Shown here: in pieces, positions 7,024 to 41,991 of the stretch
How positions within the stretch are numbered: the first letter of the stretch is position 1
How the letters are laid out: each line of letters opens with the position of its first letter
DNA from: Allacma fusca
Lineage: Eukaryota; Arthropoda; Collembola; Symphypleona; Sminthuridae
Assembly: GCA_947179485.1 (NCBI GenBank)
Contig: OX359245.1
Coordinates: 78,851,067 to 78,915,066, forward strand
Direction: 5' to 3'
DNA: 64,000 nt
The notes under the pieces: model-generated
Seen by the model: only the letters and a program-made list of their open reading frames with translations
What the model was told of the DNA's origin: nothing
The model's database searches: none
Translations under genes and position numbers: made by a program

Positions 7024-7203
7024 AAGTACTTGAAGGGTTAAAATAACAATGAGAAATGTTAAGATTAAGAATTTGATTAAGAATGAAATTAAGAAACAGA
7101 AGAATAAGCTATATGTAACGAGTATTATTTTTAGAATAATTAGTATAGAAAGACTAGAGAGTATAAACGCCTTAATGGAAAAATTGTATTCCTAAATATA
7201 GAA

Positions 7204-9468
7204 ATGGAACAAAAGAAAGAATGGTTTAGACTTGCCATTGGACTATGGACTTTGATAAATGTAAACGTGACGGCTGTGACCATGTGGGACGAGCTCGAAA
7301 TTAAGCCTGGAATTACTATAGATACAGGACTACGAATGGTGGAGCTGAATGCAACAATCTTGTATGAAGGATCTATCCCTCTATTCTTTGAAGTCCCCAA
7401 ACTACCGAAATTGCATCCCCAACAAGCCAAATCAAAAACAGATTGCCCTATTACCACGGACGATTTTAGTGGATGCTCCGTACCAGCAGGAAGTATGGCA
7501 ACCAATATACGGCAACTTCAAGGAAGGGCATTTGGAACATTAGTGAGGAGAGCTAAAGCCTTATCAGGGATGCTTACGGCCGATTTGAATTACTTGAACT
7601 TAACTACCGATATTTCTGATGGAACTGAAGATGTGGAGCTAAATATGGGCAGACGACGACGAAGTACCTTGGGATTGGACTTCATTAGTAAATTTTACCG
7701 ATACTGTTGTGGATTCGCCACCTCGCAGGAAACTTTAATCCTTTCCAGCCGACAGAAACAAGTGGGACAATATATCAAGAAATTGAGAGAAGGAATTTCA
7801 ATCAACCACAGAGACGTAATTCGGATGGGCGAGAAGATGTCAGAATTTGCAAAGAATGCAGACTATGAAGTCAAACTAATCCAAGATTATCTTAGATGGA
7901 TGAATGGAACCTACCAGCGTTTTTCACCACGACTAGACGAAGTTGGTAGTACTCTTCTCAATCTCAAATTTCTAGTGGGAGAACAAGTATCATTGGCACA
8001 CCAATCGCAAATAGTTGGAGCTTATGAACAACTACAGGATATTTGTCACCAGAAAAGGTTACCCAAATTATTTATTCCACCGTCCGTTTTAGAACCCGCG
8101 TTGATAAAACTGAAAGGTGCACTTTTACGAAAATACCGCGACTTTGCAATACCCATGAATGCTACGGACTTGTATTACCGTTATCCCTTGGCAGAATGTC
8201 TGGAAGATAAAAACACCTACGTAATAAAACTTCAAATTCCCTTCGTTTCATTGGGAAAGAAATGGAAATTGTTTGAACTGACACCTTTGGACTGGGCTCA
8301 TAAGAACGAAACATGTGAGATGTCTTTACCACCAACCCTAGTGGCAAAATCAAAGACGGAAATGATAATATTTGACCATATGGACACCATTAAATGTCAA
8401 TTATTCACCACTGGTTTGTGTCATCTACCTTTCAACCCTGCAACCAAATTTTCCTACTTACCATGTCTAGAAGCCGTTTTCGAGTCCAACAACGTAAAAT
8501 CCTTACATAAAGTATGTAAATTCGACTGTCTAGATGATTCCAAACCACGGATGACCAGACTCACTAATACAAAAATATCAGTAGCCCATTTACCTTTAGA
8601 CGGATCGGTTCTACGATGCCCTTCAAAAGATTATCTATTACCTAATAATACCCAAGGCATTGGAAATTTAGAAATTGAGATGACCTGCTTATGTACCTTG
8701 AGAGTTCATAACAAACTATATGCGGAACCTATTTTTCCATGTGACAACACCCATTTGATTAAAGCGCAAGTAATCCATAGCATCCCATCGCAGTGGACAA
8801 GAATGGAGAATCTAATTATTTCAGACGATAAAAGGTCTTGGAATCGACCAGAATTTACCAATCTAAGCTTCGTGTTTAATTCAGAGTGGAAACATAACAT
8901 TTCAAACATGGACTTTACCGTATCCTCCAGTATAAATGACACCTTCGAATCATGGAGAAATTCTCTCAATGATATTGAGTGGACAAACGTTCCCGATTGG
9001 CTGCAAGGAGAAGTTAGCAGTACATCTCCTCTGATAATTATATGGCTTACTATTTGCACCCTATTATTGGCTTTTCTGATGTACGAGAATACCCGGAAAT
9101 CAACCTTCATTGGAATGTTGGCAACGAGAATCAAATCAACTGAAGGCTATACGCCCCATTACTGTCATTTACCGACCTATCTTGAAGCATTTATTTGGCT
9201 TATTCTCTTCGGAATGATACTCCTTATTTTCCCGAAAATATACCGATACTTCAAGGACCAGATCAAATGGAGAATACATAGCAGACGCTGGGAAGCGGAA
9301 GAGAGACAGCGACAACAGCGAGCTCAGGAAGCCATTAGGCTTACAGAACCCCTTCGTTTTGGTGACGCAGGATTAGTGTTGCACGAGACTCCACGTCCTA
9401 CGCCTTTGGTTACCCAAAAGATGGCTAAGTCTAAAAAGATTCAGTCCAATAGCTCGGTAGCAGTCTAA
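7204..9468 (+). CDS. env: Envelope-type glycoprotein of Element 1 (754 aa)
   Basis: Seen: a hydrophobic N-terminal segment (about residues 8-24), a tetrabasic motif RRRR at residues 150-153 followed by a segment with GLDFISKFYRYCCG, a heptad-rich region at about 190-260, a Cys-rich ectodomain with many N-x-S/T sites, and two C-terminal hydrophobic spans (about 608-628 and 660-682) with a basic tail. Known: errantivirus and baculovirus F-type fusion proteins are cut at a furin-like site just before the fusion peptide. Inference: an F-like class I fusion protein. The start follows an ATATAG acceptor-like site ending at 7201, consistent with a spliced env mRNA. Confidence 0.85.
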   Translation: MEQKKEWFRLAIGLWTLINVNVTAVTMWDELEIKPGITIDTGLRMVELNATILYEGSIPLFFEVPKLPKLHPQQAKSKTDCPITTDDFSGCSVPAGSMATNIRQLQGRAFGTLVRRAKALSGMLTADLNYLNLTTDISDGTEDVELNMGRRRRSTLGLDFISKFYRYCCGFATSQETLILSSRQKQVGQYIKKLREGISINHRDVIRMGEKMSEFAKNADYEVKLIQDYLRWMNGTYQRFSPRLDEVGSTLLNLKFLVGEQVSLAHQSQIVGAYEQLQDICHQKRLPKLFIPPSVLEPALIKLKGALLRKYRDFAIPMNATDLYYRYPLAECLEDKNTYVIKLQIPFVSLGKKWKLFELTPLDWAHKNETCEMSLPPTLVAKSKTEMIIFDHMDTIKCQLFTTGLCHLPFNPATKFSYLPCLEAVFESNNVKSLHKVCKFDCLDDSKPRMTRLTNTKISVAHLPLDGSVLRCPSKDYLLPNNTQGIGNLEIEMTCLCTLRVHNKLYAEPIFPCDNTHLIKAQVIHSIPSQWTRMENLIISDDKRSWNRPEFTNLSFVFNSEWKHNISNMDFTVSSSINDTFESWRNSLNDIEWTNVPDWLQGEVSSTSPLIIIWLTICTLLLAFLMYENTRKSTFIGMLATRIKSTEGYTPHYCHLPTYLEAFIWLILFGMILLIFPKIYRYFKDQIKWRIHSRRWEAEERQRQQRAQEAIRLTEPLRFGDAGLVLHETPRPTPLVTQKMAKSKKIQSNSSVAV

Positions 9469-9606
9469 AAAGAAATACAGGTCACGTTTTACATGGTTAG
9501 GAAAGATAGAGAGGGAAACGTTAAGCAATCTGAATGTTAATGTAAAGATATGATAAATGGTGTGAAATAATTAAGATAGTTAAGATGTAAATGGTTACAA
9601 CTAAAA

Positions 9607-10221
9607 ATGAGTTTTATTCTACTCAAAAATTGTGTCTATAGGATCATGACTTATCCAACACAAATACTAATGAGAAGCCTACCTTCTACCCGTCACTTTC
9701 TGGAGATGGTCCAGGAAAGATATGCCTTTCCTTATTATGTGGAAAGATTCGAGGGCCAATTACGGGAAGCTATTGATCCAACTCAGTGGTACCACATCCT
9801 CGATCGGGAAGAAATGCGCCTGGAGGACGTCATTCAGAGTGCCATTTGGCTTAAATCCCGATTTCACGAGTGTAAAGATCTGACGCGGCTATGGGCGGTG
9901 AAAGAACAACCTCTCCTAGGTAAAGAGAAAGCGGAGGACGATAAAGTACGAGACGAGGTCTATCGCGAGATGACACGAACCCGACAATGGCCCCCAGTTG
10001 GGACTGCTGTTTCTTCACCAGTGAATGAGTGCACCGCTTGTGCATCTACCAACGGCTGTACTATGCCTTCAAAAACTCCATCACTCCAGTCGTCCTCAAA
10101 CACTAGATCGACCGCTACACCGTCTACTCTTCCACCGAAAACCTATACCCCGGCGAGTGCAAGGGCAGTGTCGCCCGGTTATTTCAATGTGGACACACTG
10201 TTAGCCAACCGTAGGTATTGA
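9607..10221 (+). CDS. Unrecognised ORF between env and the 3' LTR (204 aa)
   Basis: The frame is open for 204 codons, 138 bp after env stops. The N-terminal half is charged and helix-like, rich in Arg/Glu with aromatic residues. The C-terminal half (about residues 125-190) is low-complexity Ser/Thr/Pro. No known motif was found. The position resembles that of 3'-terminal accessory genes of complex retroviruses, but no homology is claimed. It may be expressed by splicing. The amino-acid composition shifts mid-protein, consistent with a folded part plus a disordered tail. A chance ORF is possible but unlikely at this length in AT-rich sequence. Confidence 0.6.
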   Translation: MSFILLKNCVYRIMTYPTQILMRSLPSTRHFLEMVQERYAFPYYVERFEGQLREAIDPTQWYHILDREEMRLEDVIQSAIWLKSRFHECKDLTRLWAVKEQPLLGKEKAEDDKVRDEVYREMTRTRQWPPVGTAVSSPVNECTACASTNGCTMPSKTPSLQSSSNTRSTATPSTLPPKTYTPASARAVSPGYFNVDTLLANRRY

Positions 10222-24743: not shown

Positions 24744-26916
24744 ATGAAGAATTTTTGAACACATATTCTCCTTTTTGCAATTTTTGCAAATTTCTCAACA
24801 AACGCAAATGGCGACTCGAATATTTAACAAATCACTTCGGTTCCAACTGAAATCTCCGAAGAAGGTTTGTATGAGTTTTCAAGTTTTATTTCTGTGTTGT
24901 AGAATTAGCAATAAAGTAATTATTAGTAAGGAAATTCATCACAAATGTGATCATATTTTGTACCTCATATTATATCTGAAATGTTTTAAAATGGACGAAG
25001 TTTTAATGCACAGTCAGTGCTCCGAACCATTCCCTAAAATAGTCAAGTCGAACTTTATATTATCTAAAAATAAACGGATTGACTGATATACGTAGTCATA
25101 GACTCGAACAGCGCTCCGTACGTGAAATACTTCTTTGGAGAAATTTCCTGAAATTCATAGAGAAAGATCTTTGAGATTAATTTGATAATTACAGTGGTTA
25201 CAAGTATTAACATTTCATCAGCATAAGTTTAATAATTGCAGTCACTGAAGGAATAAGTACGAACCAATGAAATATTCTTATCTTTATTTATTTATTTTAT
25301 AAAATATCCGAGGATTCTGATACGGCTGGGTTCAACCTGAGCATTTATTGGAGTATAACGTTTTCACATAAACAATTAATTTAATTTTTCAGAATCTGCG
25401 GAACTTTTCCCTGCTGTACTTCAAGATAATTACAGAAATGGATTTTATCAACTGCTCGAATTCTTCCAGACAACCAATTCCACTCTGACGAAATTACGTG
25501 ACAAACTGGATGGATTGGAAAACAAGATTGAAGTTCTGAACACAGCTCTCTTGAAAACTGCAAAGGAAACAAAAACAAATACAGATACTTTGAAAGAAGA
25601 AACTACTTCATTTTAAAAAAACCTGTCAAATGATCGTATTTTCCATTCTGAGCAAATTCAAAATCTGGAATCCCAAATAGTGAAATCAAAAAAGAAACGG
25701 GACGCTGAGGTAAATGAGTTACTTTCCAGTTTGTCATTAAAATTAGATGGATTGGAACGAACCCAAAATGTAATTCAAAGCAGTATCAGCTCGCAAGCTG
25801 CAACCATGTCAAGTCTCCAGTCGAAGAATTCCAAGATGACATCCGCTCTGTTTGGGAGAAATCCTGAGGCATTTCTTAACTTTTTACCTTCACCAAGAAA
25901 TGGAAACACTTTTAATGGCTCAACATTTGAATCTGTTTCAGCTGAAGTTCCAACGGACAATATGCTAGTTGCTCAAATAAGTAATTGAAATACTTCATTA
26001 GGAACCTAGACTTGAATGACTAATTATATTTTTCCAATTTCCGTGCCTATATTAGCAGCACCCCATGAGAAAGTCCTGGACATTATTTTTAAAGTACAAC
26101 TCGTTCAATCAAGACACTTCGATCCTACTAATCGATGCATTATGCCAGCCTCCATAAAGTTGTTATTTTACTTAATCTGATAAATAAATCCCGTTTAGAC
26201 TACATAATTTATGGATACAATTAAATACATTCCAAATCCTTTGCAAAGATTCCAGCTCTAAATCACGAGATACTTGATTTCTGAGTCAAGTCAACAAGCG
26301 TAAGTATCTTTCTTGTGTTTTTATAGATAATTTTCTTTTGCAGACAATTACATGGACGTGGATTTAACAGAATATTAATTGTACCTTGATGAAGGTTTTG
26401 TTGCAGCTATAGCTCCAAATAAAATTTTTGGGGGGAGTGTCTTTCTTGTGATTTATTAGTGACTTTACTTTTGCAGAGAATTACATGGACGTGGATTTAA
26501 CAGGATATCAGTTGCACCTGCCGTATGGTTTTGTTGTATCTCCAGCTCCAAATAACATTTCCGCCAAAACAGCCGAAGTTGCAACGTTTGTATATAACAA
26601 GAAACTGTAAGTAATCTGCAGCACGCAAAGAATTGAATAGTGTTCAAGAATAATTCTGAAATATTATGAATAAACTGTAATTATTACAGTTTGTATTTTT
26701 GCCTGTTACAGAAATTTCGCAGCAGAACCGGAAATGTCATACCGCATTGGATACACAGATATATCCCTCCATTTGTACTTTGTTCGTGGGGGGACGGTTC
26801 ATACCTTTGCTGCCGCTTTGTTACCAAGGAGTGCTCCCGCAAAGTCTATTATTTCATTGGATTGTACTGTTTACAATCACAGAGGAACCGCTGGATCGCA
26901 CAAATGCGTCACAAAT
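24744..26916 (+). pseudogene. Gene A copy A3, exons 1-4 (broken, with a duplicated exon 3)
   Basis: Exon 1 (24744-24864) has lost a base relative to A2 and meets a TGA after four codons. Exon 2 (25393-25980) has a TAA at 25614-25616. Exon 3 is present twice: 26344 to about 26430, with TAA at 26376-26378, then a second complete copy at 26477-26606 almost identical to that of A2, including its preceding intron end. Exon 4 (26712-26916) is open. Exon 5 lies 16 kb away at 43258 because Element 2 entered intron 4. The copy is a chimera of an A1-like and an A2-like sequence. Confidence 0.75.
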
Positions 26917-26956: not shown

Positions 26957-27629
26957 TGTCGGGCATTTGTAGGAAAGTACGTACGATATAGTACGGTACT
27001 TTACGTATTTTGATTAGCATGACCAGTGCCGCCCGTATAGCACTAGGTCCATGCATTTGATATTTATTTCCCTTTTTCTATTGTTTTGCGTAATGTTTGT
27101 TTACTTTTGTTATCCTATCTCTCACTTTGCATTTATTGTGAGGATCGGAGTAAGTATGTACTCCCATGTGTTAGGCGAGTTAGTAGGTCCAGGACCTACT
27201 CATTTAAATTTATTGAGTTAATTTTAAGAATGATTTTTATTATGTACACATGTGTGTCTAAATGGGGTTAGGAGCCCCTTTGACCACTATTTGCAATAGT
27301 GGCTACTTTTAGGGAATCACTGCAATTTCCAGGGTATAAATACCCTGGAAAACACAAGGCTATTATCCACTAATCTTTTGGCCCTTGTAGTGTTCAGATC
27401 CCCTTTTTGAGACCTGTGGTGTAACTTGTATCAGTCACCACTCCCCTTTTTATTTTATTGTAATATTTTGTAGATGTACTACGTTGTAGTACATATGTAT
27501 TAGTACACTTTTCTTGAAATAAACTTTATTTAATTGTTTTTGTTATATACACATACATAATTGAGTATCTCCGAGAACATATTATTACCTGCATCCTACG
27601 TACATACATATATCTATGTACAGATATAT
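26957..27629 (+). repeat. 5' LTR of Element 2, left part
   Basis: First 673 bp of the LTR, starting TGTCGGGCATTTG, identical as far as I can read to 42234-42906 of the 3' LTR. It includes the TATA palindrome and AATAAACTTTATT near 27520. An ORF inside (27086-27271) recurs in the other LTR but looks incidental. Confidence 0.93.
27329..27348 (+). promoter_or_regulatory. Element 2 LTR promoter: TATA box inside a palindrome
   Basis: CCAGGGTATAAATACCCTGG has 9-bp complementary arms around the TATA centre. It is repeated in the 3' LTR at 42606-42625. It resembles the Element 1 promoter at 10882. Confidence 0.8.
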
Positions 27630-28077
27630 TGTTGAAAGTTAAGTCATGGCAGAGTTATGTCTGACCATGCACTTTCAGTAATGTTCCGTTGTGTAATAAT
27701 AAGTATTGATTACATCTCTGTGTGATTGTGAGATGCTCGGGCAGTAGCTCAGTGTCAGCACTCCGTGACAGGATGTGCACACACAGCAGATTCCATAGTT
27801 AAGATGTAAAGGGGATTTCACACCTTGTGTTGAAATCCGGGCATGATGTTATTGGGTAATAAACATTTAACCTTTACTTATGATTATGAAATAGTCAAGA
27901 ATGTATGTATGCACTACATTAGGGTGATTATAAAATTATGACCGTTGGTCAATAATATAATAATACCATGACATTTCTGTACCTTATAAATATGTGTTTA
28001 GTTGTTAATAAAGAACAGTCGAAGAACTGATATTGTGAAGGTATAAGCTTCGGTTTTCAGTTTCTTTTATTTCAATA
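27630..28077 (+). repeat. 5' LTR of the copia element
   Basis: 448 bp, with a TATAAAT near 27986 and an AATAAA near 28009 close behind it, the compact arrangement of copia LTRs. Matches 35127-35574 throughout. Confidence 0.93.
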
Positions 28078-28607
28078 CGTTATCAACACGCTCAAACTTG
28101 CCTGTGAATAGATTAGAAATTTATCACAGTACAAGTTCTGAGTTAATCCAGTCACTGAAACAGAAAAGTTTTTTGGTAAATATTTTCAAGTTAGTGAAAG
28201 AACGGTCTCGAAAAGTACAGTAATTTCAGACTACGGGGGGAAAAAGTTTAGAAGTGCGAGGAGAAACAGTCTATCAAAGTTTTTTTCTAAAGTGTGAGTA
28301 TTCGTTTAAACTACAGTCAATTATTTTTATGTATAACTGAGAAGGTTATCATTATTAATATTGACTCCGTGAATTCATCACAATCAGTGTGTGGAAAAAG
28401 ACTACAAGCCTACTCTCTCACAACACCCCAACCTCGACCTTTAAGAAACCAACTTTTATTACGAAAAATTCCTGAAAAATTACTAGCTTCCGAGAAGGTT
28501 GCAGTTAAGGTTCAGAATTTGGAAAGTTGTGGTTGTCAAAGTGAATTCAAAATTTTTTGTTAAGCGTTCGACAAATTCGAGAAGAATTTGAGAATTAATA
28601 ACATTAT
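28078..28607 (+). other. Leader of the copia element
   Basis: The sequence just after the LTR (CGTTATCAACACGCTC) is where a primer site is expected; I could not assign the tRNA. An upstream frame 28294-28563 is open for 89 codons but shows no recognisable feature. Confidence 0.55.
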
Positions 28608-31600
28608 ATGTCAGGACAAGGATCTAATCCGAATAGTCCATCCCAAGTGAAAAAGCAAGCTAAAGCTCAAGCTCAGAATCAAGGAGCAGCAGCTAACGCT
28701 ATTCCAGTCATGGCAAATCAAACTGTACATCGTACGTACAAATTGGATTCGTCAAAATACCAGAAGCTGGCGGGGGCACATAACTACCTCGACTGGCGCA
28801 GGGCTCTCCACGCAGTTTTTTGTGGAGCAGATATGCAAGATGTAGTATATGGAACTACTCCTTATCCTTCAACCGGATCAGATGAAGATAAGAAAGAATG
28901 GCAACGCACGGATATGGCAGCTTATGGAATTATCCTTATGGCCTTGGATAATAAAGCAACTATCCTCACGCGGTCTTGCAGAACTTCCGCTGAAATGTGG
29001 AACAAGCTGAAATCAGCTTATGGAGCGTCAAATTCCTTATCATTGGAAGACCTCAAGGATCAATTCCGGGAATTAAAAGTCACCCCGGATTGTAATGCAA
29101 TGGAAGTTTTGGAAAAACTCCAGGATTTGCAAGGCTTAATTAACAGCCAACTGAAACCCGGGAAGGGTCCCTTAGACGAAGACGATGTCATCAGCCAATG
29201 CATCCATGCAATGAAGGGCGGATACTATGAAAGTTTCGTCACCATGTGGAGGGGGCAACCTGAGGTTGAACGGACCATGGGAAATTTCCAATCCCAGTTA
29301 CGTCTGTTTATCACACATAAACAGTCTGATGCACCATCAGAACGTGCAATGTTCGCCGGGCACCCAAAGGCACAGGGAGGGAATCCCAAAGCCAATGGGA
29401 ACAATGCCAACAATGGGAAGGCGAAGAAAAAACCAGGCACCTGCCACAATTGTGGGAAGAAAGGGCACTGGAAAGCAGAATGCCGCTCAGAGAAAAAAGA
29501 GCGTAAGGAGCAAGCCCCGAAAGAGCAAAAGCAGGAGGGCAATAAGGATGAGAAATCCCAAAAGCCCAAGCAACCTCAAGAAATTAGAGCCTGTATGTTA
29601 AGGCCTATTTACACTCCCGGGAAGACAATTGCCCTCAGCTCAACACACTTCAAGCCCTCAACAGGAAGAATTAGGCGCTCCGCATTCCAATGGGTATGCG
29701 ACACAGGGGCCTCAGTTCATTTGTGCGGCCAAAAGGACTGGTTCTCAACTTTTGAAGAATTTGCTGAACCTTGGAAGCTCATGGCGGTAAGCGACAGGCC
29801 TGTGGATTGCCCGGGAAGGGGAACCATAGTGCTTGAAGCAAAAGTCCGTGGTCGCTGGGAACCTCTGGTTTTGGATGATGTCATCTATTACCCAGGAGGA
29901 ATAAATCTGTTCTCCGTCGGAACCTACAACAGGTTGGGATACAGATACATGATGGATGGTACACAGTCTGTGTTTATCAACAAGGCTACGGGAGAGGAAA
30001 CTATCAATGCAACTGAAGTGCATGATAAGATTCACATTATGAACTTCCGACTACCAACAAGTTTTCCCAGGGCACTCGCAGTCATCGGTATTTCAAGGCC
30101 AATAAGTCAACGCTGGCATGAAAGGATGGGCCACATGAACTTTGAGTTCCTCCACAAAACCTTCAAAGATGGCGCGGCACACCTCAGAGAGGACGACCGC
30201 ATAGAAAAGAAGTATAAGTGTGAGATATGTGCCATCACCAAGATGAACAATGAGTCATTCAAAACTCAAACCCATGACAAGCAGTATGAGACAGGAGAAC
30301 TGTTACATGCTGACCTTGTACATGCAGCAGCTACTTCCAACCAGAGATGCAAGTATTATTTACTTGTGAAAGATCATGCCTCAAACTACAGGTTGGGATA
30401 CTTTCAAGTGGATAAAACAGCTGATTGTACAGTCATCAACCTCATTGATGCAGTGAACTTTATTTCCACTCAGACAAAAAATCCCGTGAGGCGATTTAAG
30501 TCTGATAATGGGACGGAATTTAAAAACTCCAAATGGGCCACATTCTGCTCACAGAGAGGAATTGCTCATGAGTTTACCCCTGCTTACAATCCTCAGTCAA
30601 ATGGAAAGATTGAACGGGAGGTCCAGACCATCACCAAAATGGCTCGGGCGATGTTAGTGGAAGCAGGTCTTGGAGAGAATCACTGGCAAGATGCAGTAGC
30701 TATGGCTGTGTACTTACTCAACCGAGTTTTAAGTACAACCAACACAAAAATGTCACCTATAGAGATGGTGACTGGAAAGAAACCGAATCTTTCCCATCTA
30801 AGGATTTTTGGATGCCCTGCCATTAGCGGCAAGCAAAAGGATCCGGCAAAATGGGGCAAACAAGGACGCAAGGGTCTTTATGTAGCAAATGTCCCAGATA
30901 CAAAGCAGTATAAAATGTGGGATACTGTAAAAAAGGAATATTTTTACACCCGACATGCACTCTTTTATGAGGAAGTAATGACAACTGATGCAGGAGTGGG
31001 AAAAAATCCTGGAAAGATTTTTCTCAACCAACTCCCGGAAAGCTCAGTTCAGGAGGTTGAAACCATCTCATCAGATGAAGAACCTGAGGACATCACAATT
31101 GTGAAGCAAGTTCAATTTGTGCCAAATCCTCTTCATACTCCTCAAATGCCGGCCCAAATTCCAGCTCCTCCGAGCCCCCAGCCCGTGTTCACTCCGAGAC
31201 TGACATCCACTCCCGTAAAAAGGACGACGATTCATCCGGCAGGAATTTCTAAAAAATATAAGGAGACATTAAAGGCGAGAAGCCCTTCGCTCCTTGATAC
31301 TTTAGCTCCGGAGGAACCACCCAGACCAGAATCACCCATTCCAGGGTGTAGTACTCGGCCATCAGCCCCGGCCCAAGTACAAAATGATGATCCAGCAGTC
31401 GAATCAGATAGTGATGCACTAGTTATTGACGCTGGAAGTGGCAGTCTTGACTCGGAAACAGATTCTGATGAAGAATTTCAGTCAGCAAACCTAGACTCCA
31501 CACAGAGTATTCCTCAAGTTTCATGGAATGACCAGGTGGAACAATCAATTGAGGAAGAATTAGCTGATGCCTCCAGGGATACAGTAGTAATTCCACAAGT

Positions 31601-34600
31601 ACAATCTCCTCCTCCAACTCCAGGACGGAGCAGCGGGGACACTCAGCCTCAATCAGGTCTCAGACGAACGACCAGGACTACAGCAGGAATACCCGGACCC
31701 AAATTTCAGGCCGGATTTTATGTCGGAGTGGATTGTTTTCATGCAGTTGGAAATTGCCCTCCGGAAAAAATTCCTGACAATTACAAAGTTCCAAAATCAT
31801 TCAAAGATGTACGCCGTAATCGGTTCAAATTTGAGTGGGAGGAAGCTATGGACCAAGAACATTGCAGCCTCATTGAAAACAGGACTTGGAAATTAGTCAA
31901 ACGTCCCCACAATGCAAAACTACTCAGAAATCGGTGGATTTTTGTAGAGAAAAAGTTACCTGACGGGGGGATTCGCAGAAAAGCTCGCTTAGTCGTCAAA
32001 GGATATGGTCAGCGACCTGAGATAGATTTTCATGAAACTTTCGCACCTGTTGTGAGATACGAAACAGTGCGAGCAGTATTTTTTGCCATAGCTCAGCAGA
32101 ACTTACAAGTCATTCAATTTGACGTGAGTACAGCTTTCCTGAACGCTCCTCTAGACGAGGAGGTTTATATGGAACAGCCGGAAGGCTATGAAGTTTCAGG
32201 AGGGTATGTCTGTAAACTTGAGAAAGGTTTATATGGACTGAAACAAAGCCCTCGGAACTGGCACAAACTCATAAAGGCTAAACTCATCTCCCTCGGATTT
32301 GTAAAGTCAGCCTATGACTCCTGCCTCTTCACCTACAACAGTGGAAATACACGAATGATACTCGCACTGTATGTAGACGACGGTCTCCTTGCAGGAAACA
32401 GTAAATCCTCAATGGACCTCATACTGAAAGAATTACGAGCCACCTATAAGATGACGTCAACAGAAGACGTGAGGAAATTCTTGGGAATGGAAGTCATCAT
32501 CACGGACACACAAGTTATGCTACATCAAGAAACGTACATAATGGAAGTTGCAAAACGGTTTAGTATGGAGAAGTGTGAAACTTCCAGCATACCAATGGCC
32601 GCTAATCCGGATTTAGATGTAGACATGTTCTCAAAAGATCATGACCCATCACTACCATACCAGGAGTTAGTAGGAGCTCTACTATTCATATCAAGATGTA
32701 CCAGACCGGACATTTCCTTTGCCGTGGGTAAACTGTCCCGCTACTTTCAATGTTACGAGAGAAAACACTGGGAGGCAGCCAAAAGGGTATTGCGGTACCT
32801 AGTAACTACTAAGAAGCTAGGACTCTGTTACACTCGCCTGGCGGAAACGAGTCTTAAAGGTTACAGTGATTCCGATTATGCTGGGGATAAAAAGACTCGG
32901 AAGTCTACCTCAGGCATTATCTTCACTCTTAATGACTCACCTCTGCACTGGAAAAGTCAGAGGCAAACTCTCATCGCTCACTCCTCCACGGAAGCTGAGT
33001 ACGTTGCATTGAGCGAAGCTAGCAAAATGGGGGAATGGCTCAGGAACCTGTTAGCTGACATTGACATATACAATGTCACCCTGCCATTCACAATTTTTAC
33101 TGATAATCAGAGCAGTATGAAATTAGCGGCAAATCCGGAATTTCATGACCGGACAAAGCACATTGATGTGCGACACCACTACATCCGATGGTTAGTGGAA
33201 ACAGGGCAAGTAGAGATCAAATACTTACAAACTGGAAGGTTAGTGGCCGATATACTAACGAAGCCACTGGGTCGGCAACAATTCGAGCCCAAAATGGAAT
33301 TACTCTCCCTCACTCGGAAACTGACGGTAGACGTAAAGGAACCTGACCAGCCTCAAACCAGCTCACAAGCAGTAAAGAGGGTATGTGCACTGTCATCACT
33401 GTGGAACGTGATACTGTTCATGCTTTTCTTTCCTCTGGTATTTTGCCAAAAATTCCAGGAGGGTAATGCTGTGATTTGGAGACGGAGCCTCACCCCAGCC
33501 ATTGAAGGCTATAACTCTGTAGCTATGAGAATTAGCTTAATTTCGCCATGCAAATTTCTCCCGACGGAAGGCCTGACCACAATGGCCGCGGAGAGAATAA
33601 TGAAGCAATGCGAGAATCAATATGAGAAATTATTCTTGGAAGAATTGCGGATGGCATGTCCACCAAAGGACACTCGGCTTCAGAGGGACAAACGGGAACT
33701 CCTTACCCTAATATTTTTAATAATAGTGGTATGTACGGCAAGCGCCGGGATCGGCATTGGACTTTATGCATTACACAAGATCGATAAATTGGAAATCACT
33801 CAGTTGGAAATTGAGAGAACTATGGATGACCTGGAGGAAAAAGTAAAGATCAACAGCGTCAACTTGGCCAAATTAAAGTTCGAGGTGGATAAAATGGCTC
33901 AGACGATTAACAATTTAATCAATGACGTTCATTTATTCCAAGAAAAAGTGATTGAGATTAATTATCTTGTATCCTACATAACTTCAAGATTGTTAGTAGG
34001 ACGGGGGGTAGTACAAGAAACAAGACGGCTCTGGAATAAAAAGAAGATGGACAATAACTTCTTTGACTTCATGAACGTCTCCCTCCCGTGCGGTCAGGAA
34101 TGCCCCATCGAATACGCAGAATTCCGTAGATGTTCGTTGGATCGAGAAGATTCCGAACTGGAACTACTTTTTGCGGTACCTGTTATGAGTAACATGACAG
34201 TTTTAGAGGCCGACCCCTTCTTCCTAATGCTTAAGGATAAGGATCAGACATGTAAATTGGAATACATTGGCCCTGAAAATGCTCTTCTCTCACCTGAAGA
34301 GGACTGTCTCCGAGCTGTAGATATGAGGAGGGAATCCTCAACTCAGCTGTTTGCCTCCCGCTCAACTGAGTGTATGGAACTGGATATGGCCAAGGACGAG
34401 GGCAAATTTTATAAGACCCTGCGCTGCCTTCCGAGCAAACCTGGAGATGAGAAAGAATTTGTTCAAGTTAAGACACATAACAACAAATTCTATATATACT
34501 GCCCTGGAAGGGAGTATGTTAGAGGCGGCGATAAGAATAAAGTGAAATGCCCAAGCAAGGTGTTCACTTTGCCCCTCACAGCTACTTTTTCAATAGACAA

Positions 34601-35042
34601 TTTAACTTATCGAGGAGATATTTTAAACTTGATCTATAATGAGAAAGAGGACCCTTTGCTCCACGAGAAGATTGAGTGGCATCTCTCCCCGGTCGTTAAA
34701 TGGGATGATTTGAACGAGACGTTCCCGATACTGGAGCCCTTGGACAAAAATCACTGGACCCGTCAAACTGGAGACGAGATGTATGGTGCTGGATCCTGGA
34801 TGCTGATAAGCTTGGTACTATTTCTGGCTGGAATCATCGGTGCTTTTATAGGATACAAAAAGTGCAAGAAGGTGCTGAAGCCACGAAAATTGAGGAGGGC
34901 CAAGAGAAGACATCCCAAGGTTGAATCTACACCGGAAACTGAAATGATCGAGCTGGAGCAGATTGGGGACGAGGACATCAGTGAAGACGTCCCGTCAGCA
35001 GCGAAGAAATTTCATCATGTTGAAGAAATTTCCATAGGTTAA
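28608..35042 (+). CDS. Copia Gag-Pol-Env-like single polyprotein (2144 aa)
   Basis: Order along one frame: Gag with CCHC knuckle CHNCGKKGHWKAEC (residues 279-292); protease DTGAS (365-369); integrase with HHCC finger and DD35E triad D569, D633, E669; RT with YVDD (1255-1258); RNase H ending near 1565. This integrase-before-RT order defines Ty1/copia. About 550 further residues follow with no stop: a signal-like hydrophobic segment (about 1592-1613), basic motif RDKR (1693-1696), a hydrophobic Gly/Ala segment (about 1698-1722), heptad repeats (about 1725-1795), a Cys-rich region with N-glycosylation sites, a membrane anchor (about 2064-2085) and a basic tail. The final part has the layout of a class I fusion glycoprotein. 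How it is released from pol (cleavage at RDKR or signal peptidase, or a spliced mRNA) is unknown. Confidence 0.95.
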   Translation: MSGQGSNPNSPSQVKKQAKAQAQNQGAAANAIPVMANQTVHRTYKLDSSKYQKLAGAHNYLDWRRALHAVFCGADMQDVVYGTTPYPSTGSDEDKKEWQRTDMAAYGIILMALDNKATILTRSCRTSAEMWNKLKSAYGASNSLSLEDLKDQFRELKVTPDCNAMEVLEKLQDLQGLINSQLKPGKGPLDEDDVISQCIHAMKGGYYESFVTMWRGQPEVERTMGNFQSQLRLFITHKQSDAPSERAMFAGHPKAQGGNPKANGNNANNGKAKKKPGTCHNCGKKGHWKAECRSEKKERKEQAPKEQKQEGNKDEKSQKPKQPQEIRACMLRPIYTPGKTIALSSTHFKPSTGRIRRSAFQWVCDTGASVHLCGQKDWFSTFEEFAEPWKLMAVSDRPVDCPGRGTIVLEAKVRGRWEPLVLDDVIYYPGGINLFSVGTYNRLGYRYMMDGTQSVFINKATGEETINATEVHDKIHIMNFRLPTSFPRALAVIGISRPISQRWHERMGHMNFEFLHKTFKDGAAHLREDDRIEKKYKCEICAITKMNNESFKTQTHDKQYETGELLHADLVHAAATSNQRCKYYLLVKDHASNYRLGYFQVDKTADCTVINLIDAVNFISTQTKNPVRRFKSDNGTEFKNSKWATFCSQRGIAHEFTPAYNPQSNGKIEREVQTITKMARAMLVEAGLGENHWQDAVAMAVYLLNRVLSTTNTKMSPIEMVTGKKPNLSHLRIFGCPAISGKQKDPAKWGKQGRKGLYVANVPDTKQYKMWDTVKKEYFYTRHALFYEEVMTTDAGVGKNPGKIFLNQLPESSVQEVETISSDEEPEDITIVKQVQFVPNPLHTPQMPAQIPAPPSPQPVFTPRLTSTPVKRTTIHPAGISKKYKETLKARSPSLLDTLAPEEPPRPESPIPGCSTRPSAPAQVQNDDPAVESDSDALVIDAGSGSLDSETDSDEEFQSANLDSTQSIPQVSWNDQVEQSIEEELADASRDTVVIPQVQSPPPTPGRSSGDTQPQSGLRRTTRTTAGIPGPKFQAGFYVGVDCFHAVGNCPPEKIPDNYKVPKSFKDVRRNRFKFEWEEAMDQEHCSLIENRTWKLVKRPHNAKLLRNRWIFVEKKLPDGGIRRKARLVVKGYGQRPEIDFHETFAPVVRYETVRAVFFAIAQQNLQVIQFDVSTAFLNAPLDEEVYMEQPEGYEVSGGYVCKLEKGLYGLKQSPRNWHKLIKAKLISLGFVKSAYDSCLFTYNSGNTRMILALYVDDGLLAGNSKSSMDLILKELRATYKMTSTEDVRKFLGMEVIITDTQVMLHQETYIMEVAKRFSMEKCETSSIPMAANPDLDVDMFSKDHDPSLPYQELVGALLFISRCTRPDISFAVGKLSRYFQCYERKHWEAAKRVLRYLVTTKKLGLCYTRLAETSLKGYSDSDYAGDKKTRKSTSGIIFTLNDSPLHWKSQRQTLIAHSSTEAEYVALSEASKMGEWLRNLLADIDIYNVTLPFTIFTDNQSSMKLAANPEFHDRTKHIDVRHHYIRWLVETGQVEIKYLQTGRLVADILTKPLGRQQFEPKMELLSLTRKLTVDVKEPDQPQTSSQAVKRVCALSSLWNVILFMLFFPLVFCQKFQEGNAVIWRRSLTPAIEGYNSVAMRISLISPCKFLPTEGLTTMAAERIMKQCENQYEKLFLEELRMACPPKDTRLQRDKRELLTLIFLIIVVCTASAGIGIGLYALHKIDKLEITQLEIERTMDDLEEKVKINSVNLAKLKFEVDKMAQTINNLINDVHLFQEKVIEINYLVSYITSRLLVGRGVVQETRRLWNKKKMDNNFFDFMNVSLPCGQECPIEYAEFRRCSLDREDSELELLFAVPVMSNMTVLEADPFFLMLKDKDQTCKLEYIGPENALLSPEEDCLRAVDMRRESSTQLFASRSTECMELDMAKDEGKFYKTLRCLPSKPGDEKEFVQVKTHNNKFYIYCPGREYVRGGDKNKVKCPSKVFTLPLTATFSIDNLTYRGDILNLIYNEKEDPLLHEKIEWHLSPVVKWDDLNETFPILEPLDKNHWTRQTGDEMYGAGSWMLISLVLFLAGIIGAFIGYKKCKKVLKPRKLRRAKRRHPKVESTPETEMIELEQIGDEDISEDVPSAAKKFHHVEEISIG

Positions 35043-35118
35043 GAATTAATTAATATTTTGGGTTCTTTAATAATTCTGTGTATGTTTTAATCAATTTTAT
35101 TTTACAGCAACTTACATT

Positions 35119-35126
35119 AAGGAGGG
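35119..35126 (+). promoter_or_regulatory. Polypurine tract of the copia element
   Basis: AAGGAGGG abuts the 3' LTR start at 35127, as expected for plus-strand priming. Confidence 0.85.
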
Positions 35127-35574
35127 TGTTGAAAGTTAAGTCATGGCAGAGTTATGTCTGACCATGCACTTTCAGTAATGTTCCGTTGTGTAATAATAAG
35201 TATTGATTACATCTCTGTGTGATTGTGAGATGCTCGGGCAGTAGCTCAGTGTCAGCACTCCGTGACAGGATGTGCACACACAGCAGATTCCATAGTTAAG
35301 ATGTAAAGGGGATTTCACACCTTGTGTTGAAATCCGGGCATGATGTTATTGGGTAATAAACATTTAACCTTTACTTATGATTATGAAATAGTCAAGAATG
35401 TATGTATGCACTACATTAGGGTGATTATAAAATTATGACCGTTGGTCAATAATATAATAATACCATGACATTTCTGTACCTTATAAATATGTGTTTAGTT
35501 GTTAATAAAGAACAGTCGAAGAACTGATATTGTGAAGGTATAAGCTTCGGTTTTCAGTTTCTTTTATTTCAATA
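35127..35574 (+). repeat. 3' LTR of the copia element
   Basis: 448 bp, same sequence as 27630-28077. It is followed by TATAT, the target duplication, and then the rest of the Element 2 LTR. Confidence 0.93.
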
Positions 35575-35799
35575 TATATATTCCATACCTGAGTACCTAC
35601 CCTATACCCATTATCTCTCTTTGTTCATAGAGTTAACTCTGTTGGGTTTTCCACTTGTTAACTCTAACCCTTTTCTGATCAACCCTATTTTGTATTATTA
35701 CCTTACCATACCTTGCCATCTATCTTTGCCTTCCCTCCCAAAGTGCTCTGAAGTACATATTAGCTTGTTGCTAGTACTTGGTCCAGATTCCATCCGACA
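35575..35799 (+). repeat. 5' LTR of Element 2, right part
   Basis: Begins with the TATAT duplication and ends CCGACA at 35799. It corresponds to the last 220 bp of the 3' LTR plus the duplicated 5 bp, with one noted substitution (A versus G in TTTTCTG[A/G]TC). Confidence 0.92.
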
Positions 35800-36549
35800 A
35801 AATCTTAGGTGCGGGGTAGAAACCTGTTAACCCTTTATCATCCCATTGTCGGACCTGGGGTAACTTTGGACTTCTGAAGTGGACCTCCTGGGGCATTCTG
35901 GGATTTATTTTTTAACTGTTACAGGTAAGTAGAAATTTCTATAAGTACTTCTCTACTTTTCTATACCTATATTTTTCATTTTCGGAAATAGTTCCAAATT
36001 TTGAAAATTATTTTCATAATAGGAAATATAGGGTTCCAATACCTCTTTTTGAAGGAAATTTATTGCTTTGTCGAAATAGGGTAATTTGAGAATTTTTGAA
36101 GATTGCTTTAATTGAATAGCATTATTCTCTCTACTTCTACTATTTCTTTATACTGCTGAACATAAATTACCTTATTATCCCTCCTTTAACTACTCGGTTG
36201 ACGGGTACACTTGTCAGACTTACGCAACCACGTGTCTAATTGTAAGTAATGACAGTGTTTGGGGCAACCAGTAGCTTCTAATTTCCTTGCACCCATATTT
36301 TACCCGAACCTTTTGTTTAATTATCCTCCCCTTTTGCTAGCATACCGGCTTAGCATACATAATAATTTTTTGTCTGTTAGTACTGTTCCGTGGTTATCAT
36401 TTATCAGAGTAGATAATTTCCCTCATTGTTCAATTAAGTGTTTCAAGTTGGATAACTTAATATCGTTAGGGTTATTACTACTGGTGGTAGTTGCCGAAGT
36501 TCTAACGTTCCTCTCATATCTCTTTGCGAGTTATTCCGCTCCCATTACC
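35800..36549 (+). other. Leader of Element 2
   Basis: About 750 bp, AT-rich, between the LTR and the gag ATG. The gag frame is open upstream to 36259, but the strong context ACCATGG at 36550 and the start of the conserved Gag sequence favour the later start. No tRNA match was identified for the primer site. Confidence 0.6.
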
Positions 36550-37431
36550 ATGGATCAGGCACTTATTAATGCAGCTGTGCAAGCAGCTTTGCAGTATCTT
36601 GCTGCAAATCCTGTCCAAGGATTAGGGCAGAATGCTTCTCATGAGTATCATATGATCCAGAACTTTAGGAAATATGATGGTTCGCATGCAGCTAGTCAGT
36701 GGATTGCTGAATTTAACAGAGAACGTGCTGCATATAATCTGAATGCTTTATGGGCTATACGAAACATGGATAGGCTTTTGACAGGGACTCCCGCTACATG
36801 GTGGCGATCACAGCGAGGTCCATATTTTGCTGCTGTAGATGCTAACGCTGCTGATGCTGATGCTCAGTGGTTATTAGTTAGTGAGGCTTTCAGGAATTTC
36901 TTTAGTGATAATAATTTGAAGGAATTAGCTAGGTCAGAGAATGACAGTATTAAGTATAAAGTTGGTGAAGATACGTTATGCTATATCACCAAGAAGGTAG
37001 ATTGCCTTACTCGCATGAATCCTGTGATGCCTATCAGCGAACAGATTCGCTATATCTTGTTAGGTCTTCCTATTGAGATTAGGCCATTTATTTCTGATGT
37101 AGATACTGTTGATCAGCTTTTCCACAAGCTGAATAATCACATTGCTTTAAATATTCCTAAGGTCAGGAATATTGGTGAGTCCTCTCAGCATAGTCCGCAA
37201 GTTAGGAAGTTCGATTCAAAGGATAGTAAGCCTTATAGAAGTATTGAGGGATTAAGGATCCCAAATTATTCCGAAGAACATAGGAGATCCTGTGTTGATA
37301 AGAACGGAAAGAGGCTTTGCTTGGAATGCAAGTCGCCTAATCATGCCGTTAGAAATTGTTTTAAGCTTTGCGCCGCACAGGGAATTGCTATTCCTGAGTG
37401 GGGAAAGAAGAATAATGACTCAAAAAACTAG
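36550..37431 (+). CDS. gag: Gag of Element 2 (about 293 aa)
   Basis: Ty3-type Gag. The capsid-like region has FRKYDGS...WIAEFNRER and LLTGTPATWW, and one zinc knuckle CLECKSPNHAVRNC sits near the C-terminus. Start chosen at 36550 because of its Kozak context and the domain start. The frame ends in a TAG at 37429-37431 directly behind a slippery heptamer. It is intact. An env gene and the small upstream ORFs of Element 1 are absent. Confidence 0.9.
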   Translation: MDQALINAAVQAALQYLAANPVQGLGQNASHEYHMIQNFRKYDGSHAASQWIAEFNRERAAYNLNALWAIRNMDRLLTGTPATWWRSQRGPYFAAVDANAADADAQWLLVSEAFRNFFSDNNLKELARSENDSIKYKVGEDTLCYITKKVDCLTRMNPVMPISEQIRYILLGLPIEIRPFISDVDTVDQLFHKLNNHIALNIPKVRNIGESSQHSPQVRKFDSKDSKPYRSIEGLRIPNYSEEHRRSCVDKNGKRLCLECKSPNHAVRNCFKLCAAQGIAIPEWGKKNNDSKN

Positions 37432-40400
37432 GTAGCCTTGGTATGCGGGTACGCAAGGCTGGTCCTAGGAAAATGATTCAAGTTAATTGTCAATCTTGGG
37501 TTGATAAATTTAGTCATAGGAATAAATATTCATTATTAGATTTAGAAAAGACAGATATACCATCCTCTGATGGTAGTTTACGTGGTAATGTTTCAATGGG
37601 ATCGGTCCGTATACGGACATTGGCAATAGACGATGATATTGTTTGGCCTGTTAATATTGCTGGGAAACCAGACTTGAAGATTAAAGGTTTTGTTGATACA
37701 GGCGCTGATATAACCATAATACATCCAGACATTCTTGATATGCTAGGAAATTGTTACCCTAGATATTCCTGTACTCCTATTCATGCCACTTTATCGGTCT
37801 CAGGTGAAACGTATTGTATTATTTCTGAATATGTTAATTTAGAATTAGAAGCCGAACTTTGGTCGGTGCGTTTGGAAAGTTTATGTTGTGCCAAACGTTA
37901 CTTCAGCTTTGACTGTAGGAAAAGATTTTCTTAAATATTTCAAAGCTATTGTAGATTGCGACGAAGGTGGTGTTTATTTTAAATCCCATCCACGTGATGA
38001 GGATAGTTATGCTGATATTAAAGTTTGCAATTTGAAAGCAAAGAATTATTTTAAGCCTAAACCTAAGGAGCAGGTCGTTAGTCCTAAACCAAAGGTGGAG
38101 GTAAATTATCCTAAACCTGAGGTAAAGGTAGTTAAACCAGTTCCGAAGGTGAAGGAAGAGAAATTGTATTTTGAAAGGGATGTTTCAGTTAGTAGTGATA
38201 ATGATTCCCTGAAGGATATTAATTTCTTTGATGCTAATTCAGTAGATGCTAAGTTTTACAGACAACTGAAAGATAAAGTTCCTATTCCTGATATCTTTCC
38301 TAAGCTTGCCAAATCTAAAGTTCCCTATGTAAGTACCAAGAGACCATTTAAGATTCAGCCTAATTCATTCCATAGAATATTAGTACATGTTCCTGGTCGA
38401 CATAATGGAGATATTATTGTTGACAGAAACGAGGAACTTTTGCATAGTGAAGGAATTCTTACTGTCTCTTGTGTAACCAATTGTAAGGATGGACAAGCTG
38501 TAGTATGGGTCATTAACACGAATAGTTGCCCAGTTGTTTTAAGCCCTTGTCGGGAATTTAGTACTTATGATTTTTGTCAGAGCAATGATCGGGTTGTTTC
38601 CCTTTCTGCGCTAAATATAGGCAATGATGGAACGAAGTCTGAGTCTGCTATTATTACAGATTTTAATGATGAAGAATTAGATGAATTTAATTTTGGTCCT
38701 ACTTTGACGGACGATATGAAGTCTCTTTTGATTAACGTTTTAGTTAAGAATCGTAGTGTTTTTGCGTTTAAGGACGAGGATATCTCTTGCATCGTTGATC
38801 AGTTTGGTAAACCTATCCAAGCTAGATTCACGTTAAAGGATGACATTCCTGTTACTTGTAATCCGTTTAGGCATTCTCCTGAAGCGGAAAGGATCATTGA
38901 TGAACAGTTTGATAGAGAAGTTAAATTAGGATGGGCTGAGCCCGGTAATGGTCCATACGCTGCTCCTTGTCTTTTGGTTATACGAGGAAAGAAGAAGAGA
39001 GCTGTTATGGATTACCGTTCTGTCAATAAGAAGATCGTACCATTTAGTTTTCCAGTTCCTAACTTACACACTGTCCTTGATTCCTTTGCCGGTTCTTGTT
39101 GGTTTTCTAAAGTAGATTCTCCCGATGCGTTCAAACAAATTGAACTAGCTGAAGAATGTCGGGATTCATTAGCGTTTATCACTAGTAAACGTAAATTAAG
39201 ACCAACTAGAGTTCCGTATGGGTCTGTTAATAGCCTTGCTATTTTTCAGTCTGTGTTGAACCAAATTTTGGGTTTGTATAATTTAAGCGGCCTTGCTAAT
39301 TACGTTGATGATAATGCCGTACATGGACCTGATTTTGAGACTCATTGCCAGCGATTAAATGAATTTTTAGCTGTATTAGATAGACATCGTGTAAAGCTTC
39401 GACCCAAGAAATGTTCATTTGGTTTTGAAGAGTTAGAGTATTTAGGTCATATCGTTAGTAAGAACGGTATTCGAATTGATTCCGAGAGATTGAAAGCTGT
39501 GAATGATTGGCCAGTGCCATCTAATCCTACAGAGATTCGATCTTTTATTGGTTTTTGTGGTTTCTTTAGAAGACATATATGGCAGTTTTCTAAAATGGCA
39601 GGACCATTGCATGAATTGACTAAAGATAATGTCGATTTCAAATGGTCATTTACAGAGCAACAAGCATTTGAATCTTTGAAGAATGCTATGATGTCTGCTC
39701 CTATTCTTGCGTATCCTTCTGAAGAAGGTAAATTAGAGATGTTTTGCGATGCATCACATAAACAGATAGGATCTGTACTTATTCAGAATATTAAAGGTGT
39801 TCGTCGAGCTATTTCGTTTTATGCTAAGAAGTTTGATAAGCATGCACTTAACTGGCAAATTATGGAGAAGGAGTGTTTTGCTATCATAATCAGTGCAGAG
39901 AAGTTTAGACCATACATTTGGGGTAGAAAGGTCGACGTATACACCGATAATAGTTCATTACAGTGGTTAGTTAACTTACGAGATCATAACGGACGCTTAG
40001 CTGGATGGGCTGCGAAATTGTCGCCTTATAATTGTGATATTTACCATATTCCTGGAAAATCAAACGTCGTGGCTGACGCTTTGTCCAGGGTTAACTTAGC
40101 CAAAGTATCCGTTTCTATTAATGCTCTGAAATCAAAGTTTCCTATATTCAGATTACGATCTATTCAAGCTCATGTAGATGAGAATATTCATGAAATTAAT
40201 AATGAAGAAGAGTTATTTACTTATTGCAAGGATGTGGAAAAGGAGAACTTTGTAGCAGTACAAAGGAAGGATCCTGACCTATGTCGTATTATAAAGTCAT
40301 TAAAGGGCAGTGAAGATGATACTGTCAATATTTCTGGAAAATATAATGCCAATTATTGTTTAATTGATGATGTTTTGTACCGAGCTAATTACGATCCTGA

Positions 40401-41991
40401 TGGAGTTCTCTGGTTATTAGTTATTCCTAAAGAGTTGCGATTAAAGATTTTTAACGAGTTTCATTGTAAGGAGTTATCTCACTTAGGTTTAGATAAAACA
40501 TATGTTGCTATGAGTATGAGGTATTTCTGGCCTGGCATGTATCGAGATGTTAGACGTTGGACCCAAGCTTGTAAGACTTGTTAATTCTTCAATGTTGCGC
40601 ATACCAAAAGGTCAGGACCTCTTATTTCGATGATGACTCCAGTTGATCCGTTTGTTCGTATTTCACTAGATTTTATAGGACCGTTAGTCGAGACTCGATC
40701 TGGTAACAGGCATGCGCTTGTTATCATTGATCAAGCGACTCGATGGGCGGAAATTATTCCTACGCCTGATCAGACTTCTGAGTCTGTTATTAGAGCTTAT
40801 CGTAATGTTTATGCTGCTAGATATGGTCACGTGGACGTACAAGTGTTAGATAATGCTGCTAACTTTACATCCGGTGCATATATGGAATATTGTAAGTCAG
40901 AGGGTATTATTTTGAAGTTTATTAGTCCTCATCATCCAGCTTCTAATGCATTTGTCGAACGGTCTAACGGAACGTTCAAAGATATGTTAGCTAAGCTAGT
41001 CAATGTAGACCATGATAATTGGGATGAGTTGATGCCTCAAGCTGTACAAAGTTACAATATTTCCAAGCATTCTACAACAGGTTTTAGTCCTTATTACTTG
41101 TTGTATGGTAAGCATCCGAGTTTTGGTAGTGATAAATTTTATCCAGTGAATGCTGATAGAATTAAGGAGCGTTCTCCAGAGGAACGTCGTTTCCAACTAT
41201 ATAAGGATAGAGTGAAGGCTAATGAGAATACTTGCCGAAATCAGTTAGCTGAAAAGATTAAATTCGATTCATGTCATTCAAACGTAGAATTTAAAGTAGG
41301 TGACTTTGTCTTACATAAGAACTATGAGCGGAAGAAAGGAACTACCGCTAAATTTCTTGTGAAATGGAAAGGTCCCTTTATAGTTCTCGAACGTCCTAGA
41401 CAGTTAACTTATTACATTAAGCACGTTGATTCAGAGCCTGATGACAATACTATGCTAATGGCTCATGTTCATAACCTTAAAGAATATATTCCTGATGTAC
41501 CTATACCTGATGAACCCGAACAAGATTATAGCTTAGATTGGCTAGATAATTTTGTTCCTACTCCTGATTATCCTGAATTTTATGAATACTATAATTTTTC
41601 GCATGCTGGTGATGTTAATCATGATGAGATGATTAGAGACGTTGCTCCCGAACCTGATGCACAAGTCGCTAATCAAGACATTCCTGCTGTACCGATAATG
41701 CCTCAAGCTGTTGAAGAGGTAGTACCTGAACAAGTTAATGAAAAACCTGTCCAGCCGATTGTTCCTTTCCAGGAACCAGTAATTATTCCAGAACGTATTC
41801 CAAGGTCCAGAGACGTTTCTTCTCAAGGAAGCGTAGCGTCCCGGACATCTTCAAGAATTAAGAAGCCTACGGTAAAGTTAACCGTCGATCCTAGTAAGAA
41901 ATCTTATAAAGCCTTAAAGATTGAAATGTTCAATAGTATGATTGAATCTTTAAATAATGAAGACCATGATAATGATGATAAAGAACTTTAA
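37419..41991 (+). pseudogene. pol: Pro-Pol of Element 2 (two lesions)
   Basis: Protease DTGAD lies at 37695-37709 in the frame reached by the -1 shift. Between about 37849 and 37934 the reading passes into another frame, a +1 step relative to the protease frame, most simply an indel. From there RT (YVDD at 39301-39312), RNase H and the integrase HHCC finger follow. A single in-frame TAA at 40582-40584 interrupts just after the finger's last Cys pair. The frame then continues through the integrase core and a GPY/F-type module to 41991, with an acidic and Pro/Gln-rich tail. Both lesions would block a full Pol product. Domain order (RT before integrase) identifies Ty3/gypsy. Confidence 0.9.
37422..37468 (+). 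promoter_or_regulatory. -1 ribosomal frameshift signal, gag to pro-pol (Element 2)
   Basis: The heptamer A AAA AAC (37422-37428) is in gag register and is followed at once by the TAG stop. Five bases on, the stem AGCCTTG (37434-37440) pairs with CAAGGCT (37454-37460), and CTAGG (37428-37432) can pair with CCTAG (37464-37468). The -1 frame is the protease frame (DTGAD at 37695-37709). Confidence 0.87.

What the first reader, a model, noticed from the sequence alone, without database searches (positions are those of the whole stretch)
33360..35042. Ty1/copia element whose pol runs in frame into an envelope-like glycoprotein
Seen: no stop between the RNase H end and a roughly 550-residue region with a signal-like segment, RDKR, a hydrophobic Gly/Ala segment, heptads, a Cys-rich ectodomain, a membrane anchor and a basic tail. 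Known: env capture is usual in Ty3 and BEL lineages, and plant sireviruses carry a separate env-like ORF after pol. An in-frame gag-pol-env fusion in an animal copia element is, to my knowledge, not standard. With identical LTRs and a clean TSD, this looks young and functional. It could be a copia lineage that moves between cells or hosts.
Basis: partly seen in the sequence, partly recalled or inferred. Interest (0 to 1): 0.88.

Follow-up and report, generated by a model that had tools for sequence, protein, structure and literature searches.

The report
Copia retroelement with built-in envelope protein
A young jumping gene of the copia type, probably from a springtail, carries the code for a virus-like membrane-fusion protein joined to its enzymes in one long protein, and many distinct relatives in the same genome do the same, which suggests that this branch can act like a virus and not only as a confined jumping gene.

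Summary
A Ty1/copia element (27630-35574, 448-nt LTRs identical, TSD TATAT) has one 2144-aa frame. After RNase H it runs without a stop into a signal segment, an R-x-K-R site, a hydrophobic Gly/Ala segment, heptads, a Cys-rich ectodomain, a membrane anchor and a basic tail. It is not a one-off: at least eleven lineages in this genome (env identity down to 26%) have the same in-frame gag-pol-env order. Of 150 RVT_2 (copia RT) rows, 129 have a related env just downstream, among them all 61 in frames of 1850 aa or more. Relatives occur in Allacma fusca, Folsomia candida and other sequence sets. The env ectodomain is as constrained as RT-RH (dN/dS about 0.04), and RT and env trees show no supported conflict. 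A weak structure model and a weak profile point to class I F proteins of the paramyxo-/pneumovirus type, short of proof. Env has no start codon of its own near its signal in most lineages and no splice pair was found in common, so a Gag-Pol-Env polyprotein with an internal signal is the likeliest expression. Infectivity is untested. In copia, env-like genes are described for plant sireviruses (SIRE1 by stop-codon suppression); the papers I could search showed no animal or stop-free case.

The parts
27625..27629 (.). target site duplication, left copy (TATAT)
   Evidence: flanks
27630..28077 (+). 5' LTR, 448 nt, TGTTG...CAATA
   Evidence: identical to the 3' LTR; same ends in other family A copies
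28078..28090 (+). putative primer binding site (CGTTATCAACACG), internal-tRNA type, tRNA-Ile-like by inference
   Evidence: abuts the LTR, similar in families A-D; tRNA assignment recalled, not tested
28608..35042 (+). single gag-pol-env open reading frame, 2144 aa
28812..29252 (+). Gag (Retrotran_gag_2)
   Evidence: E 1.7e-13
29436..29486 (+). CCHC zinc knuckle
29691..29942 (+). Pol_BBD (protease region)
   Evidence: E 3.1e-15
30066..30980 (+). integrase: gag_pre-integrs, rve core, SH3-like
31878..32600 (+). reverse transcriptase RVT_2
   Evidence: E 1e-62
33249..33269 (+). end of RNase H (DILTKPL motif; name of the domain by recall, no Pfam match)
33390..33446 (+). internal signal segment before mature env
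   Evidence: hydropathy 2.1; a hydrophobic core at this place in the 12 rows
33447..33695 (+). F2-like N-terminal env subunit ending in RDKR (furin-type site 33684-33695)
33696..33764 (+). fusion-peptide-like hydrophobic Gly/Ala segment
   Evidence: hydropathy 2.55; alignment
33768..34019 (+). heptad-repeat helix
   Evidence: long helix 168-226 in the (weak) model
34074..34784 (+). Cys-rich ectodomain, beta strands in the model
   Evidence: invariant Cys in 17 sequences
34797..34853 (+). membrane anchor
   Evidence: hydropathy 2.4
34854..35039 (+). basic cytoplasmic tail
35116..35126 (+). polypurine tract ATTAAGGAGGG
35127..35574 (+). 3' LTR
35575..35579 (.). target site duplication, right copy (TATAT)

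Best explanation
This is a recently active member of a diverse, old lineage of Ty1/copia retroelements that acquired a class I, F-like envelope protein, most simply once before the lineage split, fused to the C-terminus of Pol. Shown: the anatomy, the recurrence of the in-frame fusion, purifying selection on env, RT and env trees without supported conflict, recent copies. Inferred: the element makes a Gag-Pol-Env polyprotein; the internal hydrophobic signal emerges after RNase H and sends the rest into the ER, as internal signals do in polyproteins of other enveloped viruses (recalled); signal peptidase frees Env after about VFC|Q; a furin-like protease cuts at R-x-K-R into disulfide-linked F2 and F1; trimers reach the cell surface and let particles leave and enter other cells, probably soma to germ line or host to host.
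Confidence: 0.75

Rival explanations
1. Env is made from a spliced mRNA that joins the gag start, in frame, to an acceptor before the signal; the shared frame is a by-product and the full polyprotein is rare.
For: Insect errantiviruses make env from a spliced mRNA, in one subclade from within gag (passages of PMC12992720). Two D copies share donor-like sites in gag, the stronger scoring 11.3 in L048. The Folsomia gene model P0011 joins the start of an RT stretch to env. Env mostly lacks a nearby start codon, which splicing could supply.
Against: No acceptor above threshold in the scanned stretch (last 150 residues before the end of RNase H, and the linker) in A and B, and no donor/acceptor pair shared by A-D. 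Linkers of 172 and 187 codons stay open, which an intron would not need. The Folsomia junction is a predicted gene model.
Confidence: 0.22
2. The env-like domain is translated but serves inside the cell or the same animal (membrane anchoring of particles, cell-to-cell passage, blocking of related elements) and not extracellular infection.
For: The ICTV profile says that members of Pseudoviridae lack an extracellular phase (PMC8515867, whole text). Gypsy-type elements without env can pass between cells with a small FAST-like protein (passages of PMC11952523). A fixed Pol:Env ratio suits anchoring.
Against: Cleavage site, the hydrophobic segment behind it and the Cys pattern are kept over lineages with only 26-33% env identity, as expected for a fusogen.
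Confidence: 0.2
3. One-off recombination, assembly fault, or a pseudogene read by chance.
Against: Many copies and lineages, other species, 5-bp duplications at 18 of 20 sites, purifying selection.
Confidence: 0.01

Closest known systems
Sirevirus (plant Ty1/copia), above all SIRE1 of soybean
   Same: Copia pol followed by an env-like region; [quoted passage not shown]
   Different: Plants only; env-like proteins share little sequence and are doubted as true envelopes (passages of PMC3414828). Here no stop, probably an animal host, and one related protein kept over many lineages.
Errantivirus / insect ERV (gypsy, ZAM; Metaviridae) Env-F
   Same: LTR retroelement with signal peptide, furin site, fusion peptide, conserved Cys and anchor (passages of PMC12992720).
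   Different: Gypsy order RT-RH-IN (recalled), env on a spliced mRNA. hhalign of this env with the gypsy-type third ORF of the same window gives no match (probability 1.1%).
Anakin (LTR element with an env from a chuvirus)
   Same: Another env capture outside retroviruses (named in PMC12440569, passages).
   Different: Env of chuvirus origin; not copia as far as I recall.
Paramyxovirus/pneumovirus F protein
   Same: Short F2, R-x-K-R, fusion peptide, first heptad region, beta domains, anchor (layout of F recalled); first in Foldseek and VIA.
   Different: No significant sequence match; fold only weakly supported.
Hemivirus (copia of Drosophila)
   Same: Copia domain order; short tRNA segment as primer (ICTV text; primer here inferred).
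   Different: No env (recalled); primer usually initiator tRNA-Met (ICTV text), here tRNA-Ile-like by inference.

Membership tests
Pseudoviridae (Ty1/copia) | integrase before RT, RVT_2-type RT, copia gag | tested here: met
Pseudoviridae (Ty1/copia) | LTRs, PPT, short target duplication | tested here: met
Pseudoviridae (Ty1/copia) | no extracellular phase (ICTV wording) | not testable with these tools
   the env suggests otherwise; needs experiment
Sirevirus | plant host | tested here: inconclusive
   host not named; named env relatives are in springtails Allacma fusca and Folsomia candida
Sirevirus | env-like as a further ORF after a stop | tested here: not met
   no stop
Hemivirus | primer is a short tRNA segment | tested here: inconclusive
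   PBS abuts the LTR and resembles an anticodon arm (recalled); tRNA search did not complete
Errantivirus | gypsy pol order RT-RH-IN | tested here: not met
   integrase precedes RT
Errantivirus | env from a spliced mRNA | tested here: inconclusive
   no site pair shared by A-D in a simple scan, candidates in C and D; no RNA data
Class I viral fusion protein (F-like) | furin-type site followed by a hydrophobic fusion peptide | tested here: met
   as sequence only:
Class I viral fusion protein (F-like) | heptad-repeat helix after the fusion peptide, C-terminal anchor | tested here: met
   window env:
Class I viral fusion protein (F-like) | F fold | tested here: inconclusive
   low-confidence model, F proteins rank first, ties with others in Z
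Class I viral fusion protein (F-like) | detectable sequence homology | tested here: inconclusive
   none of note; 14 F0 rows among 47, E 0.56-2.7
Class I viral fusion protein (F-like) | membrane fusion activity | not testable with these tools
   needs an assay

The most novel reading that the evidence does not exclude
A whole branch of Ty1/copia in springtails became enveloped, retrovirus-like agents: an origin of a retrovirus-like life style from the copia stem, separate from retroviruses, errantiviruses and other env-bearing LTR elements, with all proteins in one Gag-Pol-Env polyprotein carrying an internal signal. It would deserve its own genus and would end the statement that pseudoviruses have no extracellular phase.
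Probability: 0.5. Interest if true: 0.92.

Novelty: new variant of a known kind. Interest (0 to 1): 0.83.

Why it matters
Env capture is the step that turns a retrotransposon into a virus. It is well known for Ty3/gypsy and reported for some other LTR elements, but the copia family is described as lacking an extracellular phase, with doubtful env-like genes in plants. A conserved, selected, F-like env fused to copia Pol in at least eleven lineages of one genome gives a clear test case, with many young copies, for how copia elements could spread between cells and hosts, and for an unusual way of expressing a membrane glycoprotein from the end of a polymerase polyprotein.

Tried and rejected

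Of the 21 RVT_2 rows without an env row, six were read: four have env matches, two (L072, L075, both broken) have none in the roughly 3-kb stretch fetched; 15 short or broken rows were not read. So an env-less copia lineage is not excluded.

Full report
What is in the window. One open frame of 2144 codons (28608-35042) lies between 448-nt LTRs that are identical (27630-28077, 35127-35574) and flanked by TATAT. Pfam finds copia-type Gag, a zinc knuckle, the protease region, integrase and then RVT_2: a Ty1/copia element. The last 560 codons have no Pfam match above cut-off and no PDB sequence match of note. They contain a hydrophobic signal (residues 11-29), RDKR at 109-112, a hydrophobic Gly/Ala segment (117-135), an anchor (480-498) and a basic tail, with heptad periodicity over 137-220 that 0-11 of 2000 shuffles reach.

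It is not a one-off. In the window's own genome (393 Mb, unnamed) 78 env matches were scored. Twenty-seven cover all 560 residues at 98-100% identity without a stop; 25 of these 27, the window copy included, lie in frames of 2144-2147 aa. Families at about 86, 57 and 39% identity (B, C, D) also lie in frames of up to 2148, 2216 and 1946 aa; other copies of theirs are broken. A search with the RVT_2 family listed 150 copia RT places. I read six outside A-D, chosen because their frames were long; all six run from RNase H into an env in one frame, 26-31% identical to the window's env. Four more with shorter or broken frames also have env matches downstream (L070 is of the same family as L065). 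Cross-matching the 150 RT rows with env rows and one gives 129 with env 0.5-4.5 kb downstream on the same strand; all 61 rows in frames of 1850 aa or more are among these. Of the 21 others, six were read: four have env matches, two broken ones have none in the stretch fetched; 15 were not read. I met no intact env-less copia lineage, but did not exclude one.

Other species. Protein searches found eight relatives (P0003-P0010) and a ninth (P0011), from sources labelled jgi, ena, ncbi and lgn; the named hosts are the springtails Allacma fusca and Folsomia candida. P0005 is an 873-aa protein with the end of RVT_2 (residues 3-66), RNase H and env in one chain. P0011 is annotated 'Copia protein' in Folsomia; Pol_BBD, gag_pre-integrs, integrase core (under cut-off) and SH3 precede env, a weak RVT_1 match under cut-off lies at residues 26-94, and the body of RT before env is missing in the gene model. 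The host of the window is therefore probably a springtail (inference). It is not the sequenced Allacma: the best listed match of the Allacma protein is 91%.

Age and activity. Of 20 LTR pairs measured in four families, 14 are identical over the whole reported alignment and six are 98.6-99.8%; in at least two of those six (A2, B2) the differences lie beyond the LTR end. Eighteen of 20 sites show a 5-bp duplication by inspection; D2 and D4 do not. Several families have thus moved recently.

Selection and history. Between A and four B copies, dN/dS is 0.038-0.041 in RT-RH, 0.036-0.047 in the env F1 ectodomain, 0.34-0.41 in the linker and 0.22-0.31 in the tail; synonymous sites are near saturation, so values are approximate. 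Env is about as constrained as RT. RT-RH and env identities rise and fall together, and trees of 13 rows show the same two halves and the same outer branches (D; F61) without a supported conflict, rooted only at the midpoint. The simplest history is one fusion before these lineages split, followed by joint descent.

How env is expressed. Linker plus signal ranges from 48 to 186 residues in 12 rows, all without a stop. For the C linkers (172 and 187 codons) 0 of 5000 shuffles are stop-free; for the short linkers of A, B and D 2-6% are, and in B the other frames hold only 0 and 1 stops, so these alone prove little. In 11 of 12 rows no Met lies within 20 residues before the signal core, and L061 and L063 have none between RNase H and mature env; four rows have a Met inside the core. 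Separate initiation is therefore unlikely. A simple scan found no splice donor and acceptor shared by A-D; two D copies share donor-like sites in gag (one scoring 11.3) and weak acceptor-like sites occur in C and D. Errantiviruses do use splicing (passages). The most likely product is a Gag-Pol-Env polyprotein with an internal signal; this is inference.

Compared with what is known. ICTV describes Pseudoviridae as without an extracellular phase, with env-like genes in plant sireviruses (whole text). Sirevirus papers call the env function unproven, and SIRE1 expresses it by stop-codon suppression (passages). Env captures named elsewhere are in errantiviruses and Anakin (passages). The listings of my eight topical searches showed no animal copia element with env; few of the listed papers were opened. 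I file it as a new variant: copia by the tested pol features, not a sirevirus by the missing stop, and F-like in env.

Limits. No transcripts, proteins or infectivity data; host unnamed; the genome search scores only the best candidates, so counts are lower bounds; place lists for one search were typed by hand from outputs.

Noticed in passing
window 1379-10221 (+): Ty3/gypsy-type element: gag (340 aa), pol (1489 aa), then a 754-aa ORF with an RRRR site, Cys and membrane segments that looks like an errantivirus Env, and a 204-aa ORF of unknown kind. No Pfam match above cut-off for these two ORFs.
   Followed up: partly
window 36259-41991 (+): A second, broken gypsy-type element (protease, RT, RNase H, integrase in separate frames) about 0.7 kb behind the copia element.
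   Followed up: no
window 26303-26560: Two tandem 125-nt copies, 81% alike, before the element.
   Followed up: no
G000 C8 about 50.6-51.2 Mb and C1 about 22.6-23.1 Mb: One copia-env family (frame 1958 aa) is clustered in two chromosome regions, unlike the scattered family A.
   Followed up: no
L052/L002 and L053/L020 against the window copy: Family A copies with identical or near-identical env differ in the leader and, for L052, in the Gag N-terminus, which suggests recombination between subfamilies.
   Followed up: no
window 28078-28090 and L041-L060: The primer site CGTTATC..CACG is similar in families A-D and looks like the anticodon arm of a tRNA-Ile; ICTV gives initiator tRNA-Met as usual. 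tRNA match recalled, untested.
   Followed up: partly
window 28058-28077: The LTR ends in CAATA and not the usual CA.
   Followed up: no
P0007, P0011: Public gene models of springtails lack stretches of these copia-env frames, as if cut out as introns, and leave env without a name.
   Followed up: partly
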